Positions 3,952-54,644 of a stretch of 64,000 nt of DNA are shown here, piece after piece. Each line of letters begins with the position of its first letter. Positions within the stretch are counted from its first letter, which is position 1. The position numbers and the translations under genes are program-made. Origin of the DNA: Agapetus fuscipes (lineage: Eukaryota > Arthropoda > Insecta > Trichoptera > Glossosomatidae); contig OX637332.1 of the NCBI GenBank assembly GCA_951799405.1, positions 1,307,001-1,371,000 on the forward strand, read 5' to 3'. The notes beneath the pieces are model-generated. The model searched no databases and was not told where the DNA came from. It saw nothing but the letters and a program-made list of their open reading frames with translations.

Positions 3952-4397
3952 GGCCGGGTATTTACAACGTTACCATACGTTTACTTAATAATAATAATAA
4001 TAATATTACGATGATTTATTTGGTGAGCGCTGCTTTTGTGTGTATCACACCTCAAGAGCCCTCTGCGAGCTTAGTCGTCGCTGTAAAAAGCGCAGATTCT
4101 CAAGCAAGACCCAGTTGTTGTAAGGTTGGATGGACCTTTCAGTGACCGGTCTTTGGCAAAGCTTTGGTAAATCCACAACCTTCTATTTACGAGTCCGAAG
4201 TGTTCCCACTGGACTACCGACCGGTGCAAGAAATCCCAACAACACGCGGTGTACCTAGCGGTCACCCATCCAAGTAGCATCCGCGCCCAATGTCAGCATC
4301 ACTATAAACTGATAAAAAAACTACCTTCTTCCCACATGATTGTTTGAATTGAGAGCGTCCTTTTCAGTTGATATGCTAACGTTGAAAACACCGGGCT
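3952..4397. mobile_element. PIF/Harbinger-like MITE carrying a SINE-A
   Basis: The ends GGCCGGGTATTTACAACG and, inverted, AGCCCGGTGTTTTCAACG match over about 25 bases. TTA is duplicated at 3949-3951 and 4398-4400. The surrounding RTE-1 tail reads GCAAC-TTA-GATTATAG once the insert is removed, which fixes both ends. It contains SINE-A at 3985-4297 and no transposase. Confidence 0.8.
3985..4297 (-). mobile_element. SINE-A with partial 5S-like head
   Basis: In minus-strand order there is a truncated 5S-like piece (4230-4297, including GGATGGGTGACCGC and ACACCGCGTG), then the tRNA-like unit, then the body. A deletion joins the tRNA-like region directly to the middle of the body near 4165. The tail is (ATT)n-like. 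Confidence 0.75.
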
Positions 4398-26248: not shown

Positions 26249-27541
26249 TTAAGGGCAAAGTATGGCCGTCGTTAACTTTTTCAAAGTATTGGTCGATTGG
26301 TAAAAAATATCCAGTTCACTAAACTTTTCATTGAACAACCGCGAAGCTCTCAAGAGGAATGAGTTTCCGTATGAATTTGTTCTGTGAGACGGAATATAGA
26401 GCTGGATTTTGGTGTTTCTTGACGTCATCCTAGGCACTCGGATTCCCACTTCAGACAGGAGTTCGGAGCAAGACACGTTACCCCGGATGAGTTTGAATAG
26501 GAACATTAGGTCCAGAACACTCCGTCTCGCTTGGAGCGAAAACAAACCATAGTGTTGCAGCGCCGTATGATAGTCGGCAAGCTCTCGATGGAGACCGTCT
26601 CGGTACAAGAGTGTCCTGATGAGGCGTTTTTGGATGGCCTCTAATCTATTGACATAGATGATATATTGCGGGTTCCAAACTTGGCAAGCATATTCAAGTA
26701 TTGGTCTTACGTAAACTTTATAAAGACATAATGCCACTGCAGTGTTTCGGAATGGCTTACAAGATCTCAAAACAAACCCAAGCAGTTTGTATGATCTTTT
26801 AATGATGCTATCTATGTGGTAATTGAATCTCAATTTATTGTCTAATATAAGCCCCAGATCACGTACTTGATCGGCAGGTTCCACGAACTCCGATTGAATC
26901 TCGTATTCAAAGACTAATGGGTTCTTTTTCCTAGTGAACCTCACGATGCAACATTTAGAAACATTTAAAGAAAGTTTATTTACGATACAATAGTCACCAA
27001 AGCGTTTCAAATCTCTTTGGATAGATACACAATCTCTCACGGATGCCACTTCTGAAAAAATCTTCATATCGTCTGCATAAAGTAAGACGCTTGAATTGAG
27101 GAAGCAATGTCTTATATCGTTTATAAAAATTAATAATAAAAGAGGACCCAGATGGCTACCCTGCGGCACACCCGAGACGACCCGTTCACGTTTGGAGGTG
27201 ATTCCCCCAATCGTTACAGATATTGTTCTATCATACAGGTATGATTTGAGCCACCGGAGTAGGTCACCGTGTATTCCTTGCCACTCCAGCTTGTAGCAAT
27301 TAGGATCTTGTGGCTAATCTTATCAAAACATTTGGAGTAATCAGTGTAGATCACATCAGCCTGAGATCCTGCGTCCATAATCTTTAGAATTTTTTCCGTA
27401 AACAGTACCAGATTTGATGCGGTGGACCTGCCTGGTAAAAACCCATGTTGATTTACATCAATTGCATTTTTCACCGCGGAGAAAATCTGATCATATGCTA
27501 TTTTTTCGAGTAACTTCCCAAATATAGATAACTTAGACACA
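26249..27541 (-). pseudogene. LINE reverse transcriptase with one frameshift
   Basis: In minus-strand order the first frame (27541 to about 27300) has QHGFLPGRSTASNL and VIYTDYSKCFDKISHKIL, the latter holding the first catalytic aspartate motif. The second frame (27169-26249) has PQGSHLGPLLLLIFINDI, LLYADDMKIF, LSLNVSKCCIVRFTRK, VRDLGLILDNKLRF, YVRPILEYACQVWNP and AIQKRLIRTL, through to a C-terminal FSLQARRSVLDLMFLFKLI. These are the motifs of Jockey/CR1-group reverse transcriptases. The endonuclease domain is missing and the two frames are not continuous, so it is inactive. Confidence 0.88.
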
Positions 27542-34991: not shown

Positions 34992-35447
34992 GATGATGAT
35001 TTTGATGGATGATTTATTTCCGGTGGCGCCGTTTAATGATCACAGATCATCTCAAGGACGCCGTGGCTCTTCGAAAACAGCATTTTCTTAAGTCCTCTTC
35101 TGAAGGCGATGGTGGGCTGGTCAGATCGAAGGTCGACAGGCAGCTTATTCCAGGCAACTGGCCCGGCTACCCCAAAGCTCCTGTCCGCAAAATAAGAGGT
35201 ATTTGCTCTTATTGGTTCTATGATCCTGTTGACAGCAGTAGAGGCAGAGCGCAGTGATCGCCTTGTAGCGACGTCAGCAGGACATAGTTCAGCGAGACAT
35301 GGGGGTGCCGTACCCTTTAAGGCCTTGTGGACTGTGAGACATAGCTTGAACTCGACCCTCTCACGGACCCTCAGCCAGTGCAGCTCTCGCAGCAACGGGT
35401 AAATGTGGCAGTATTTATCCTGTATGTAAGAGAAGCCAATATTTGAA
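34992..35447 (-). mobile_element. L2-like LINE 3' fragment nested in RTE-2
   Basis: The minus-strand protein includes PLLRELHWLRVRERVEFKLC, LTVHKALKGTAPPCLAELC, then RSFGVAGPVAWNKLPVDLR and FRRGLKKMLF. This HWL-V-R-EFKL...YKAL-G-AP...F-VAGP-WN-LP pattern is typical of L2/CR1-type LINE C-termini. The 3' end GGATGATTTATTTCC is followed by ATC repeats. Confidence 0.8.
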
Positions 35448-35518
35448 AAACGTGATGAGTATGGATGAATTGAAAGAGGTATGCAAGTATAGGAAAAAAA
35501 TTGAGGCAAATCTGCAGA

Positions 35519-35796
35519 GGGGCTGTCCATATATTACGTCATTCGCATTATGGGGGGGGGGGAGTCTGGTCTGCGGATGATGGCAAATGATGTACGAGTA
35601 CCAAAAGTGACGTCGTTCTTGTAAATACCAATTTGTACAAAATATTATGTAAGTAATATAACATTATTAATTATTAAGCTCATCCATTATTACAGCAAGA
35701 GGGGGGGGGGGTCATTTAATAATGACTATAGGATTATTGTAAGGGGGGGGCGTCGAAAATCGGCCAAAATCGATGACGTAATTTATGGACGGCCCC
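35519..35796. mobile_element. MITE-4 with GGGGCTGTCCATA ends and poly-G runs
   Basis: GGGGCTGTCCATATATTACG and its inverse ATTTATGGACGGCCCC bound it. Three G runs of 9-13 lie inside. The interrupted RTE-2 reads CTGC-AGA-GGCTCTGG, so AGA or slightly more was duplicated. The superfamily was not assigned. Confidence 0.75.
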
Positions 35797-36622: not shown

Positions 36623-36631
36623 TAGAAAAAA

Positions 36632-36912
36632 AAATTAAATTATGCTGATTTATTTGGTGAGCCCTGTTTTTGTGTGTATCACACCTCAAGAGCCCTCTGC
36701 GAGCTTAGTCGTCACTGTAGAAAGCGCCAATTTTCAAGTAAGACCCAGTTGCTGTAAGGCTGGATGAACCGTTTGATGACCGGTCTTTGGTAAAGGTTTA
36801 TGAATTTTTCAACCCAGCGACGAGCAAATTTGAAAATTCCGCTCCACCGAAATTCGAATCCACAACCTTCCATTTACGATGTGTAACCACTGGACTACGG
36901 ACCGGTCATATT
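36632..36912 (-). mobile_element. SINE-A, complete tRNA-only form
   Basis: Tail, body and tRNA-like unit are present. It stops at GGACCGGTCATA without any 5S-like sequence, so SINE-A exists with and without the 5S head. Confidence 0.75.
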
Positions 36913-37554: not shown

Positions 37555-37680
37555 ACCGTGCAACTTTTGCCGACCTTCCCTGACACAGGGGTGACATTGG
37601 CAAAGTGAACCATTTTTTACAGTATGGGTGGTCAGCCTCATACCAACCTATAAGTCAAGGAATAGTATAGTCAAGGAATT
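37555..37680 (-). mobile_element. RTE-1 partial 3' region
   Basis: Lacks the last 110 bases. Includes CCCTGACACAGGGG and TAAGTCAAGGAA. Confidence 0.7.
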
Positions 37681-37744
37681 TATTCAAGGAATCCTCGTAT
37701 GAGAAAATCCATAGTTACCCATTACAGTTACACATAGATTTTAA

Positions 37745-38022
37745 AAATGTAATTTGTCATGTATGTTCCTTGACTTATAGGTTGTTATGCGGCTGACCAC
37801 CCATACTGTAAAAAAAATTGGTTCACTATGCCAATGTCACCCCTGTTTCAGGGAAGGACGGCAAGAGTTGCAAGGCTTATGTTCATTTGAGATTGGGTTT
37901 TTATATTGTAGGTCCACATGCGGCATGTGTTAGCGCGAAATTATACATATCTGCCTGTGGGAATGCATTTAATATAAATCTTAAATGATATATATCTTTG
38001 CAGCTTAGATTAGATTAGATTA
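37745..38022 (+). mobile_element. RTE-1 3' region, second tail type
   Basis: Starts with TTCCTTGACTTATAGG at 37765 and ends TTAGATTAGATTAGATTAGA. Confidence 0.8.
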
Positions 38023-44979: not shown

Positions 44980-45200
44980 TTTTAATTAATTAAAATACTT
45001 TTTTAACTTTGTTACAATTCACTTGAGTTTTATTTTTTAAAAAACACAACCAGTTTCGGGAGAAGCAGTACCTCCCATCTTCAGGATATTTACACCTGAA
45101 GATGGGAGGTACTGCTTCTCCCGAAACTGGTTGTGTTTTTTAAAAAATAAAACTCAAGTGAATTGTAACAAAGTTAAAAAAGTATTTTAATTAATTAAAA
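44980..45200. repeat. Perfect 106-base inverted repeat with hammerhead-like arms
   Basis: Bases 44980-45085 and 45095-45200 are exact inverse copies around a nine-base loop. In the right arm CTGAAGA (45096-45102) is followed by the helix GGGAG/CTCCC, GAAAC (45123-45127), TG, GTT (45130-45132) and GTGT, which can pair with ACAC at 45092-45095. The arms also have AAGTGAATTGTAACAAAG-like outer parts, reminiscent of the hairpin at 57605-57824. Perfect identity implies a recent origin or gene conversion. Confidence 0.85.
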
Positions 45201-47499: not shown

Positions 47500-47745
47500 C
47501 TAAGTTGCAAAATGTATGTAACATTAGAGATTCACATTATATACATTTTCACAAACAGACACGTATAAGTTCAGGCTTAAACATGCCGCATGTGGTTCTG
47601 CAATATAAAACCCCGGATCTCAAATGAACATACACCCTGCAACTCCTGCCGACCTTCCCTGAAACAGGAGTGACATTGGCGAAGTGAACCATTTTCTACA
47701 GCACAGGTGGTCAGCCGCATATCAACCTATAAGTCAAGAAACACA
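47500..47745 (-). mobile_element. RTE-1 3' region
   Basis: Module with tail AATCTAATCTCCTCTCTAAT and an intact stem-loop. It adjoins RTE-2 in head-on orientation. Confidence 0.75.
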
Positions 47746-47747
47746 CA

Positions 47748-48754
47748 TTTGTAAATGGATGGTTGAAGAATACAGCGAATACAGCGAGTATTTTAATGTG
47801 TACAAAGGTGTGAGACAGGGTTGCATAATGAGCCCATGGTTATTCAATATAATCATGGATCATTGTGTTAAACAAGCGAATCTGGAAGGACATGGCATAC
47901 AAATTGGAGAGAGAAAAGTCGGAGTTCTGCTTTATGCTGATGACGCAGTATTAATTGCTGATTCAGCAGCGGAACTCCAGACAATGCTCTCTAGTTTGAA
48001 CCATGTTCTGTGTGCAAGCAAGTTGAAAATTAATGCAAGTAAGACGAAAGTACTGATTTTTGACAGAAGGGATGAAACTGAAGAATGCACGTTTATGTTG
48101 AATGGTACGAAAGTTGAAATTGTGGATGAATTTAGATACTTGGGAAGTATGTTTGAAAAGAATGGAAAGATGACAAGAGAACTTGAGAATAGGGTGTGCA
48201 AGGGAAAGCAAGTGGTCGGTGCAATAGGAAGAATAGCAAAGAACAAGCGATTGACGATGGATCTGAGAATGGCGGTACACAATGGCATATTGTTACCGAC
48301 TTTGATGTATGGAAGTGAAGCATGGACAGTGAATGATAGCGAAATGAGTAAAGTATGTACGGTGGAAATGAAGCATTTGAGAAGTATGACAGGAAAAACT
48401 TTGAGGGATAGAGTTAGGAATGAATGGGTAAAAAAAGAATGTAATTTGAAAGAGGATGTGAAAGTTAAAGTACAAAAGAATGTGATGAGATGGTTTGGGC
48501 ATGTGGAAAGAATGAAAGATGATAGACTGACAAAGTATGTATACAAAGAAAGTGTGAAAGGAAAAAGAGGGAAGGGACGACCGAGAAAAGTATGGAGTGA
48601 TCAGATTGAGGAGATTGTGAAAGAATGGGATATACAAAGTGAGCGTAAAAGAAGAAAATGCATGAAAAAGGTGATGGATATGAAGGAATTGAAAGAGGTA
48701 TGTCAGGATAGGAAAAAATGGAGGCAACTCTGCAGAGGCTTTGGCCACCCCTAG
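47748..48754 (+). CDS. RTE-2 reverse transcriptase, C-terminal two-thirds, open
   Basis: The frame is open from the truncation point to the stop. It has GVRQGCIMSPWLFNIIMD (palm motif), VLLYADDAVLIAD (catalytic YADD), LKINASKTKVLIFDRR, EFRYLGSMFEKNGK, LLPTLMYGSEAWTVN, RNVMRWFGHVERMKDDR-type thumb/C-terminal motifs, KGRPRKVWSDQIEEIVKEWD and QDRKKWRQLC. This is an RTE-like non-LTR reverse transcriptase that would copy its RNA at a nicked target. The endonuclease and the first catalytic aspartate motif are missing. The upstream ATG at 47684 lies in the neighbouring RTE-1 and is not a real start. The long frame without stops suggests recent arrival. Confidence 0.88.
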
Positions 48755-53090: not shown

Positions 53091-53267
53091 CTTAGAGTTT
53101 GTTCATTACGTTGATCTTTAACGGGGCTATTCTTAGACATTTTAGTCGCCCATTGAGCCCACGCTTTGACAAACTAATTATGTATCTGTATGAAGACCTG
53201 TCAATCCAAGATGGCCGCAAGTGAACAGCTGATTACAGTCTTCATACAAAAACTACCAAAATTCGGT

Positions 53268-53692
53268 AATAATAATAATATTAGGATGATTTATTTGGTG
53301 AGCGCTGTTTTTGTGTGTATCACACCTCAAGAGCCCTCTGCGAGCTTGGTCGTCGCTGTAGAAAGCGCCAATTCTCAAGCAAGACCCAGTTGTTGTAAGG
53401 TTGGATGGACCTTTCAGTGACCGGTCTTTGGTAAAGGTTTATGAATTTTTCAACTCAGCGAAGAGCACATTCGAAATATAAATGGTATATTTTTGTGCTC
53501 CGCTGGGATCCGAATCCACAACCTTCCATTTACGAGTCCGAAGTGTTGCCACTACGGACTACGGACCGGTCCAAGATGCCAACGACACGCGGTGTACCTG
53601 AGCGGTCACCCATCCAAGTACTGTCCGCGCCCAATGTTGCTTAACTTCGGTGATCTATGGGAACCGGTGCTTTCAACATGGTAACGTCGTTG
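53268..53692 (-). mobile_element. SINE-A, full length with 5S-rRNA-like head
   Basis: On the minus strand: (1) 53692 to about 53575 resembles 5S rRNA along its whole length, with GATCACCGAAGTTAAGCAAC (box A area), GGGCGCGGACAGTACTTGG and GGATGGGTGACCGC (box C); (2) a tRNA-like unit to about 53505 with a B box GGATTCGGATCCCAG; (3) the body with CTTCGCTGAGTTGAAAAATT and GAATTGGCGCTTTCTACAG; (4) an L2-like tail CACCAAATAAATCATCC and (ATT)n. Both heads are types of internal RNA polymerase III promoter. CGGTA flanks it. Confidence 0.9.
53575..53692 (-). ncRNA. 5S-rRNA-derived head of SINE-A (not a 5S gene)
   Basis: About 118 bases matching the order of arthropod 5S rRNA from CAACGAC near its 5' end to GTGTCGTTGGC near its 3' end. 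Changes in conserved pairs and direct fusion to a tRNA-like unit without a terminator show it is part of a SINE. Confidence 0.85.
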
Positions 53693-53806
53693 CGGTAGGT
53701 AAGAATGACCGTAGGTAGCTAGTCATGAAACTTCCAGGTGAGGCATCATTAGTTTGTCAAAGCGTGGGCTCAACGGGCGACTAAAATGTCTAAGAATAGC
53801 CCCGTT

Positions 53807-54227
53807 AGTGTCACAGCTCATACATCTTCATTTAATACAACAGACCAGATTGAATATTTAGTTTATTAAAATGCGAAAAAAATTAAACTGCGGTTTTTGT
53901 TTTGTTTGCGTTGAAAAGAACAGCACAATATAAATTGATTTGATTTGTTCCTCTAAATGCTGCAAATCGATCTGTCGTCTCGCCGTTTAAAATGATTAAT
54001 ATTTGTTTGCCCTCGCTACGGGCATGATTTTTCCATCACGCTAAGTGCCTGGTGAGAGTGCTTCAGTGAAATTAAAAACCTATGGAATTTCATACATATA
54101 TTTTTTGCACGTAAACATACGACTATACGAGGTATGTTGTAAACAAGAAGTGAAATCCATAATTTTTAAGGTTTTTTTTCTTTTTAAGTTTCCTTGTTCC
54201 TTGGCTTCCAAAAATAAATAATAATAA
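53807..54227. other. Unassigned stretch
   Basis: Its first 30 bases equal those after MITE-1 at 5056. No gene. Confidence 0.35.
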
Positions 54228-54640
54228 TACTAGGATGATTTATTTGGTGAGCGCTGTTTTTGTGTGTATCACACCTCAAGAGCCCGCTGCGAACTTGTTC
54301 GTCGCTGTAGAAAGCGCCAATTCTCAAGCAAGACCCAGTTGTTGTAAGGTTGGATGGACCTTTCAGTGACCGGTCTTTGGTAAAGGTTTATGAATTTTTC
54401 AACCCAACGAAGAGCACATTTGGAAATATAAATGATATATTTTTGTGCTCCGCTGGGATTCGAATCCACAACCTTCCATTTACGAGTCCGAAGTGTTGCC
54501 ACTGGACTACGGACCGGTCCAACATGCCAACGACACGCGGTGTGCCTGAGCGATAACCCATCCAAGTCCTATCCGCGCCTAATGTTGCTTAACTTCGGTG
54601 ATCTATGGGAACCGGTGCTTTCAACATGGTAACGTCGTTG
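54228..54640 (-). mobile_element. SINE-A, second full-length 5S-tRNA copy
   Basis: Same order as 53268-53692, with a 5S-like head at 54524-54640. Box C reads GGATGGGTTATCGC. It ends exactly at the CAACGACGTTACC start, adjoining RTE-1. B box GGATTCGAATCCCAG is intact. Confidence 0.9.
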
Positions 54641-54644
54641 ACTA

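What the first reader, a model, noticed from the sequence alone, without database searches (positions are those of the whole stretch)
53268..53692. Composite SINE: 5S-rRNA-like head fused to a tRNA-like unit in an arthropod
Seen: two copies (53268-53692 and 54228-54640) share the order 5S-like, tRNA-like, body, tail, and a third (3985-4297) has a truncated 5S part. Known: 5S-derived and 5S-tRNA chimeric SINEs are described mainly in vertebrates (SINE3, AmnSINE1). Inference: this family has two types of RNA polymerase III promoter in series. Copies without the 5S part (36632-36912) suggest either loss or two lineages.
Basis: partly seen in the sequence, partly recalled or inferred. Interest (0 to 1): 0.85.

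Follow-up and report, generated by a model that had tools for sequence, protein, structure and literature searches.

The report
Insect retrotransposon with two gene-derived heads
What is probably an insect genome carries thousands of copies of a short jumping element whose front end is the cell's own 5S ribosomal RNA gene joined to an older tRNA-like start, and the youngest copies carry a changed tRNA-type start signal, as if the 5S part had taken over.

Summary
On the minus strand, 53269-53692 and 54217-54642 are SINEs built as full-length 5S rRNA, a 4-nt linker, a tRNA-like unit, a body and a LINE-related (ATT)n tail. The genome holds at least 4,218 exact 5S/tRNA junctions; the 100 listed have only two gap lengths. 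Copy 1 has a 5-bp target-site duplication, and two fetched paralogous MITE copies show the empty site.

The 5S head was captured most likely once, in front of a tRNA-headed SINE lineage that still exists on its own. In a tree, 19 of 20 5S-bearing copies group together. Heads step away from the host 5S in stages. A LINE 3' end like the SINE tail was found. In 3,169 of 3,838 junction copies with one of two exact B-box forms, and in 30 of 30 young copies aligned, one key B-box base is changed; 45 of 46 tRNA-only copies keep it. I infer that the 5S promoter drives the youngest lineage; there are no expression data.

AmnSINE1 has the same order in vertebrates, and insect 5S SINEs are published (HaSE3, PxSE4/5). 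I found no tandem 5S+tRNA head reported in an insect; Repbase, Dfam and SINEBase could not be checked.

The parts
53269..53692 (-). Copy 1, full-length 5S+tRNA SINE of the youngest subfamily
   Evidence: BLAST against the 30-copy consensus 99.8%; paralogous empty sites and TSD
53577..53692 (-). 5S rRNA-derived head of copy 1 (Rfam match runs to 53694)
   Evidence: RF00001, 85.1 bits, model 1-120; stepwise relation to host 5S
53573..53576 (-). 4-nt linker TCTT between 5S and tRNA-like unit
   Evidence: reading
53498..53572 (-). tRNA-like unit of copy 1
   Evidence: alignment with tRNA-only copies that start here
53549..53561 (-). A-box region of copy 1 with a 2-nt insertion (TAGTCCGTAGTGG against TAGTCCAGTGG in copy 2)
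   Evidence: box naming from general knowledge
53506..53516 (-). B box of copy 1, GATTCGGATCC, changed at the position equivalent to tRNA A58 (plus-strand base 53510)
   Evidence: genome-wide counts
53350..53497 (-). SINE body, origin unknown
   Evidence: shared by 5S-bearing and tRNA-only copies
53269..53349 (-). 3' region related to a LINE 3' end, ending in (ATT)n
   Evidence: consensus 347-433 matches the LINE 3' end in L057 in 76 of 103 columns, one 16-nt gap, E 2e-15
53264..53268 (+). Target-site duplication CGGTA, left
53693..53697 (+). Target-site duplication CGGTA, right
53119..53807 (.). MITE with 64-nt terminal inverted repeats (53119-53182, 53744-53807) that copy 1 inserted into
54217..54642 (-). 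Copy 2, full-length 5S+tRNA SINE of an earlier subfamily (95.3% to the young consensus)
54525..54642 (-). 5S head of copy 2
   Evidence: RF00001, 78.6 bits
54456..54466 (-). B box of copy 2, unchanged (GATTCGAATCC)
3988..4293 (-). 5'-truncated 5S+tRNA copy (starts at consensus 59; internal deletion)
36627..36907 (-). tRNA-headed copy without 5S, starts at consensus 125, T-rich tail

Best explanation
A SINE family of what is probably an insect. A tRNA-headed SINE, moved by a LINE whose 3' end it shares, acquired the whole host 5S rRNA sequence at its 5' end, most simply by one template switch from the 5' end of the SINE RNA to the 3' end of 5S rRNA during reverse transcription. The composite was copied by retroposition into thousands of sites and its 5S head drifted stepwise. 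During this the tRNA-type promoter behind it changed first in the B box, then in the A box, and this lineage became the youngest and commonest 5S-bearing one. I infer that RNA polymerase III now starts at the 5S head through its internal control region. Shown by sequence: parts, constant junction, target-site duplication and paralogous empty sites for copy 1, two 5'-end classes, one main 5S clade, box changes, a LINE-like tail. Inferred: template switching, use of the 5S promoter, mobilisation by that LINE.
For: Junction: 6,002 exact 5S 3' ends, 4,218 followed within 20 nt by an exact 14-nt tRNA start, reversed-pattern controls 0. Of the 100 listed, 85 have a 7-nt gap, 15 a 9-nt gap, none another. 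Empty sites: the joined-flank query aligned across the join in all 40 scored of 2,406 candidates; two were fetched and show the site without the SINE; copy 1 has CGGTA on both sides. Host 5S: 27 of 30 cut-out top Rfam hits identical. Head series host, old, intermediate, young, with linker ATTTCTT then ATCTT; L059 keeps a T6 run like a 5S terminator. Tree of 66: 19 of 20 5S-bearing copies in one clade, support 0.862. Starts of 64 copies: 6 at 1-12, 2 at 13-112, 30 at 113-133, 26 at 134-329. B-box A58 kept in 45 of 46 tRNA-only, 6 of 11 older and 0 of 30 young 5S copies; genome-wide among junction copies 669 unchanged and 3,169 A58G. The young consensus has no run of four T before its tail. LINE 3' end match.
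Against: No expression data. One 5S-bearing copy (L070) falls outside the 5S clade, so recombination or a second joining occurred; with it, the common ancestor of 5S copies spans 62 of 66 tips, and many nodes have low support. Conservation of the 5S control region is not significant with the usual limits: 2 of 13 changes in 39 box positions, P 0.13; 3 of 13 in positions 50-97, P 0.15; only a limit chosen afterwards (45-95) gives P 0.005. TSD signal is weak overall: above all 200 shuffles for 36 5S copies, but 17 of 200 shuffles reach it for 35 tRNA-only copies. The B-box substitution is mainly one inherited event, so counts are not independent; and only 35 of 46 tRNA-only copies keep the whole B-box motif tested. 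Six of 39 5S-bearing copies do have a T4 run before the tail. Insect 5S genes are recalled to need upstream sequence that a retroposed copy lacks. The LINE match rests on one 5'-truncated copy and one piece cut by a locus edge.
Confidence: 0.78

Rival explanations
1. The composite arose by DNA: a tRNA-SINE inserted into the terminator T-run just behind a 5S gene, and read-through transcripts of 5S plus SINE were then retroposed.
For: Host 5S genes are followed by T-rich DNA. Old linkers are T-rich (ATTTCTT; T6 in L059). The joint leaves the 5S 3' end complete.
Against: Also expected from template switching onto the U-tail of 5S rRNA. No founder locus was looked for.
Confidence: 0.3
2. Both promoters are still used; the box changes in the young lineage are harmless hitchhikers in a successful master copy.
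For: The B-box change is one base and shared by descent. Older 5S copies with unchanged B box also multiplied: 608 exact junction copies at normal spacing.
Against: tRNA-only copies keep A58 in 45 of 46. The changed box is carried by 3,169 of 3,838 junction copies with one of the two exact forms, and a second change hits the A box in the youngest lineage.
Confidence: 0.3
3. The 5S-like parts are dispersed 5S pseudogenes lying beside unrelated tRNA-SINEs by chance or by local duplication.
For: The genome has dispersed and inverted-pair 5S genes.
Against: Constant joint in thousands of copies, unit-length insertion with TSD and paralogous empty sites, SINE-specific 5S differences shared by copies.
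Confidence: 0.01
4. The 5S-less copies are products of loss or truncation of the composite, so the composite is the ancestral form.
For: One tRNA-start copy (L018:576-806) nests inside the 5S clade and shares its changed boxes. The commonest tRNA-only subset is itself fairly young: median 1.8% from its own consensus in 14 copies, against 0.9% for the 30 young 5S copies, so age alone does not rank the two.
Against: tRNA-only copies fall into several clades with other tails (32 of 46 with a T-rich tail, 29 of the 46 query-selected), keep A58, and the 5S clade nests among them, though in a midpoint-rooted tree. Thirty not picked by a query have median 83.4% identity to the young 5S consensus.
Confidence: 0.07

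Closest known systems
AmnSINE1 (amniotes)
   Same: Same order of parts: 5S rRNA-derived promoter, tRNA-derived region, Deu domain, 3' tail (figure legends in PMC3234267, passages).
   Different: AmnSINE1 has a Deu domain and is listed with a CR1 partner (table passage in PMC3747384); the body here could not be compared with it. Hosts are far apart. AmnSINE1 is named among ancient SINE families in PMC8136502 (passage); here the 40 best matches to copy 1 are 98-100% identical to it.
HaSE3 (Helicoverpa armigera)
   Same: Insect SINE with a 5S head and a body shared with a tRNA-SINE of the same genome (HaSE1); template switching proposed (PMC3272025, abstract and passages).
   Different: As described there the 5S head sits on the body and tail of HaSE1; no tRNA unit between them is mentioned in the passages read. 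Its tail matches an RTE LINE.
PxSE4, PxSE5, LaSE2, CsSE2 and the four SINE3 families of Kojima 2024
   Same: Lepidopteran 5S-headed SINEs (PMC8010984, passages and section 7; PMC10886601, passages and section 17). ObSE2 shares its centre with PxSE4 but has a tRNA-like 5' end, so 5S and tRNA heads alternate on one body.
   Different: Reported as 5S-headed, not as tandem, in the text read. Their sequences could not be read here (no supplementary look-ups), so an unnoticed tRNA part or identity with the present family is not excluded.

Membership tests
SINE (general) | Short, non-coding, dispersed at high copy number | tested here: met
   Copies of about 425 nt, consensus 433 nt; at least 4,218 junction copies
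SINE (general) | 5' head from a Pol III-transcribed RNA gene | tested here: met
   RF00001 matches; host 5S compared
SINE (general) | Retroposed: target-site duplication and empty sites | tested here: met
   Copy 1, against paralogous MITE copies. Across copies the TSD signal is weak
SINE (general) | 3' end shared with a LINE | tested here: met
   L057 and L046 LINE 3' ends; whole LINE not recovered
SINE3 (5S-derived head) | 5S-derived head with box A, IE and box C | tested here: met
   Head covers model 1-120; boxes little changed, though conservation is not significant at the usual limits. Box limits recalled
SINE2 (tRNA-derived head) | tRNA-like head with unchanged A and B boxes at the 5' end | tested here: not met
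   tRNA unit is internal in the composite; boxes changed in copy 1. The tRNA-only lineage does start with it
AmnSINE1-type 5S-tRNA chimera | 5S head directly followed by tRNA-derived region | tested here: met
AmnSINE1-type 5S-tRNA chimera (DeuSINE) | Deu central domain | not testable with these tools
   No Deu sequence available
HaSE3 / PxSE4 group | Shared body sequence | not testable with these tools
   Consensus sequences are in figures and supplements, not held

The most novel reading that the evidence does not exclude
The family is a natural experiment in promoter replacement: a type 1 (5S) Pol III promoter was captured in front of a working type 2 (tRNA) promoter, the old promoter decayed, and the 5S-driven lineage became the most recently successful one, against the published view that retroposed 5S promoters stay silent or weak.
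Probability: 0.5. Interest if true: 0.68.

Novelty: new variant of a known kind. Interest (0 to 1): 0.52.

Why it matters
It shows the AmnSINE1 plan (5S then tRNA) in what is probably an insect, in a family young enough that tRNA-headed kin, intermediates and composite still sit in one genome. That makes it possible to ask which of two Pol III promoters drives a SINE, and whether a captured 5S promoter can work without 5S upstream sequence; both the HaSE3 and the PxSE paper cite the view that it would be silent or weak (passages). Dispersed 5S-like heads could also mislead 5S gene annotation.

Tried and rejected
Instead the window and the flanks of the loci in hand served as a sample (332,618 bases after merging); it lies around query-selected places and is not truly random. 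For the count of 5' ends these rows were dropped: copies that a query had brought in; pure 5S genes; 4 copies cut by a locus edge; L031 and L059 (2 of 8 full 5S copies), which the 5S search had brought in; and 9 fragments starting after consensus 330, which can be LINE 3' ends. The Lepidoptera marker PF01723 (its use as a marker is recalled) gave nothing anywhere and says nothing. Looking for relatives in viral, bacterial-genome and plasmid collections gave no match. Three RT-bearing LINEs in the window and loci had other tails, (ACAAG)n, (TTACAG)n and (AAT)n, and were set aside as partners. Assembly-size text searches did not name the species. One search used a lower spacing of 40 and so missed copies at 39; one search covered those.

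In the tree only 6 of the 30 young copies were put in, and copy 1 was not one of them. One of 67 rows was dropped for gaps, leaving 66; the truncated copy at 3988 is the one absent from the tree.

Full report
Observation. The window holds two full SINEs on the minus strand, 53269-53692 and 54217-54642. Rfam finds a full-length 5S rRNA at the head of each (85.1 and 78.6 bits). Reading the minus strand of copy 1: 5S, linker TCTT, a tRNA-like unit with A- and B-box-like motifs, a body, and a tail in (ATT)n. The consensus matches 15 places in the window; some neighbours may be pieces of one copy, and the match at 2843 may be a LINE end.

It is an insertion. Copy 1 lies in a MITE with 64-nt inverted repeats, 97% complementary. 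A query made of its two flanks without the SINE aligned across the join in all 40 scored of 2,406 candidates. Two were fetched and show the uninterrupted site; copy 1 is flanked by CGGTA on both sides. These are other copies of the MITE, so paralogous empty sites; the copy 1 MITE also has 8 nt of its own elsewhere.

It is abundant and young. The best 40 of 474 candidates for copy 1 are 98-100% identical to it and nearly all full length; this set is chosen by similarity. Thirty young copies have median 0.9% divergence from their consensus over tRNA unit and body. The exact 3' end of the SINE-type 5S, CACCGCGTGTYGTTGGCA, occurs 6,002 times, the reversed control never. Of these at least 4,218 run within 20 nt into CCGGTCCGTAGTCC. 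In the 100 places listed the gap is 7 nt in 85 and 9 nt in 15. Exact matching makes these lower bounds; a few may be haplotype duplicates (L007 and L012 share flanks).

Two classes of 5' end. In merged flanks and window, 64 SINE copies that no query had selected start as follows: 6 at consensus 1-12, 2 at 13-112, 30 at 113-133, 26 at 134-329. Even spread would put 2.3 in the first bin (P 0.03) and 4.1 in the third (P 3e-19). So there is a tRNA-headed lineage beside the composite. Thirty fetched copies closest to window 36627-36907, measured with the 433-nt consensus, agree: 29 of 30 start at consensus 117-131 and one (L070) carries the 5S head. The commonest tRNA-only subset is also fairly young, median 1.8% in 14 copies.

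Origin of the 5S head. Twenty-seven of 30 cut-out top Rfam hits (47 scored of 17,830 candidates) are the same 119-nt host 5S. Of the other three, L031 and L059 are SINE copies with near-perfect heads. A query from L031 found 40 of 40 scored (6,654 candidates, L031 itself included) spanning 5S, tRNA unit and body, the others at 89-92%. Aligned heads form a series: host; old (L031, L093, L094, L096, linker ATTTCTT); intermediate (L095, L066, L072); young (linker ATCTT). A FastTree tree of the tRNA unit and body from 66 copies puts 19 of 20 5S-bearing copies together (support 0.862) with one tRNA-start copy inside. L070 sits with the T-tailed tRNA-only copies, so it is recombinant or a second joining. 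The rooting is by midpoint and many nodes are weak. The full 5S end joined to the full tRNA-SINE start, with a T-rich linker, fits a template switch onto the U-ended 3' end of 5S rRNA; insertion of the SINE at a 5S terminator would look alike.

Promoters. tRNA-only copies keep A58 of the B box in 45 of 46 (29 of the 46 query-selected; the whole motif tested in 35); the exception, L018, nests in the 5S clade. Older 5S copies keep A58 in 6 of 11 (4 changed, 1 deleted), young ones in 0 of 30. Genome-wide, among copies with exact junction and one of the two exact B-box forms: unchanged 608 at normal spacing and 61 at longer spacing; A58G 1,018 at normal and 2,151 at longer spacing. So 3,169 of 3,838 carry A58G, and 2,151 of these have the longer spacing that the 2-nt A-box insertion gives; the insertion itself was seen in the aligned copies. 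Few copies have long spacing with an unchanged B box, so the B box seems to have changed first. One inherited change explains most of this, so it is not a count of events. My reading is that the tRNA promoter became dispensable behind the 5S promoter. The young consensus has no T4 run before its tail, though 6 of 39 5S-bearing copies do. Against the reading: changes in the 5S head are not significantly depleted in the control region at the usual limits (P 0.13 and 0.15), and there are no RNA data.

Mobilisation. The last 87 nt of the SINE match a LINE 3' end in L057 (76 of 103 columns with a 16-nt gap, E 2e-15) and L046 (E 1e-11). In L057 the preceding frame reads LWNRLPPGVKNSKSMDVFRGALKTHLFRKSYP, then a stop, then SERALEV and a stop. 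A related reading frame in the window (35036-35533) looks like the same kind of LINE end. That this is CR1/L2-like is recalled, not tested. The SINE seems to keep the last codons of the LINE. 3' halves have been swapped: young 5S copies 30 of 30 with ATT tail; tRNA-only 32 of 46 with T-rich tail; some others carry two further 3' halves, one with a second tRNA-like unit (by simple pattern).

Host. A 618-Mb genome in 148 contigs. An exon in L069, which I read as TDRD3-like, has 25 protein hits; only two bear an organism name, both Lepidoptera, Phthorimaea (39%) and Iphiclides (55% over 32% of the query), and the best, unnamed, has 60%. Probably an insect, Lepidoptera or near kin; species unknown.

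Literature. 5S SINEs in insects are known: HaSE3 (PMC3272025, abstract and passages), SINE3-1_TC (named there), PxSE4/5, LaSE2, CsSE2 (PMC8010984, passages and section 7), and four more (PMC10886601, passages and section 17). In the text read none is described as carrying a tRNA unit behind the 5S head. AmnSINE1 has that order (PMC3234267, two figure-legend passages). Ten paper searches were answered (two of them for the species); in the listings I saw no insect 5S+tRNA tandem SINE. The library lacks most subscription journals, and Repbase, Dfam and SINEBase were not available, so prior description is possible.

Verdict. Real, well supported, a new variant of a known kind, with one testable and fairly surprising claim: promoter takeover.

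Noticed in passing
window 53119-53807: MITE with 64-nt terminal inverted repeats, 2,406 candidates in a first look at the genome (40 scored), host of copy 1.
   Followed up: yes
L044-L055 (G000 C28 6.42-7.05 Mb): Host 5S genes often occur as inverted pairs within a few hundred bases in a loose cluster, with identical 5S genes on other contigs.
   Followed up: no
L004:2693-2931, L022:2395-2627, L062:2818-3048, L084:3004-3212: tRNA-headed relatives with another 3' half that begins with a second tRNA-like unit (GATAGCTCAATTGGTAGAATGC in L004, L022 and L062), i.e. a tRNA-body-tRNA composite.
   Followed up: partly
L070:1493-1925: 5S-headed copy whose tRNA unit and body group with the T-tailed tRNA-only lineage: a recombinant or an independent second joining.
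   Followed up: partly
window 45045-45136 and 37622-37806: Long near-perfect palindromes that Rfam matches to plant families (MIR841, MIR5512) below the gathering score; probably MITE-like inverted repeats.
   Followed up: no
window 47663-48751, 26252-27313; L068:1858-3303: LINE reverse transcriptase reading frames (PF00078) of other families, followed by (TTACAG)n-, (AAT)n- and (ACAAG)n-like repeats; the L068 one has a SINE just behind it.
   Followed up: partly
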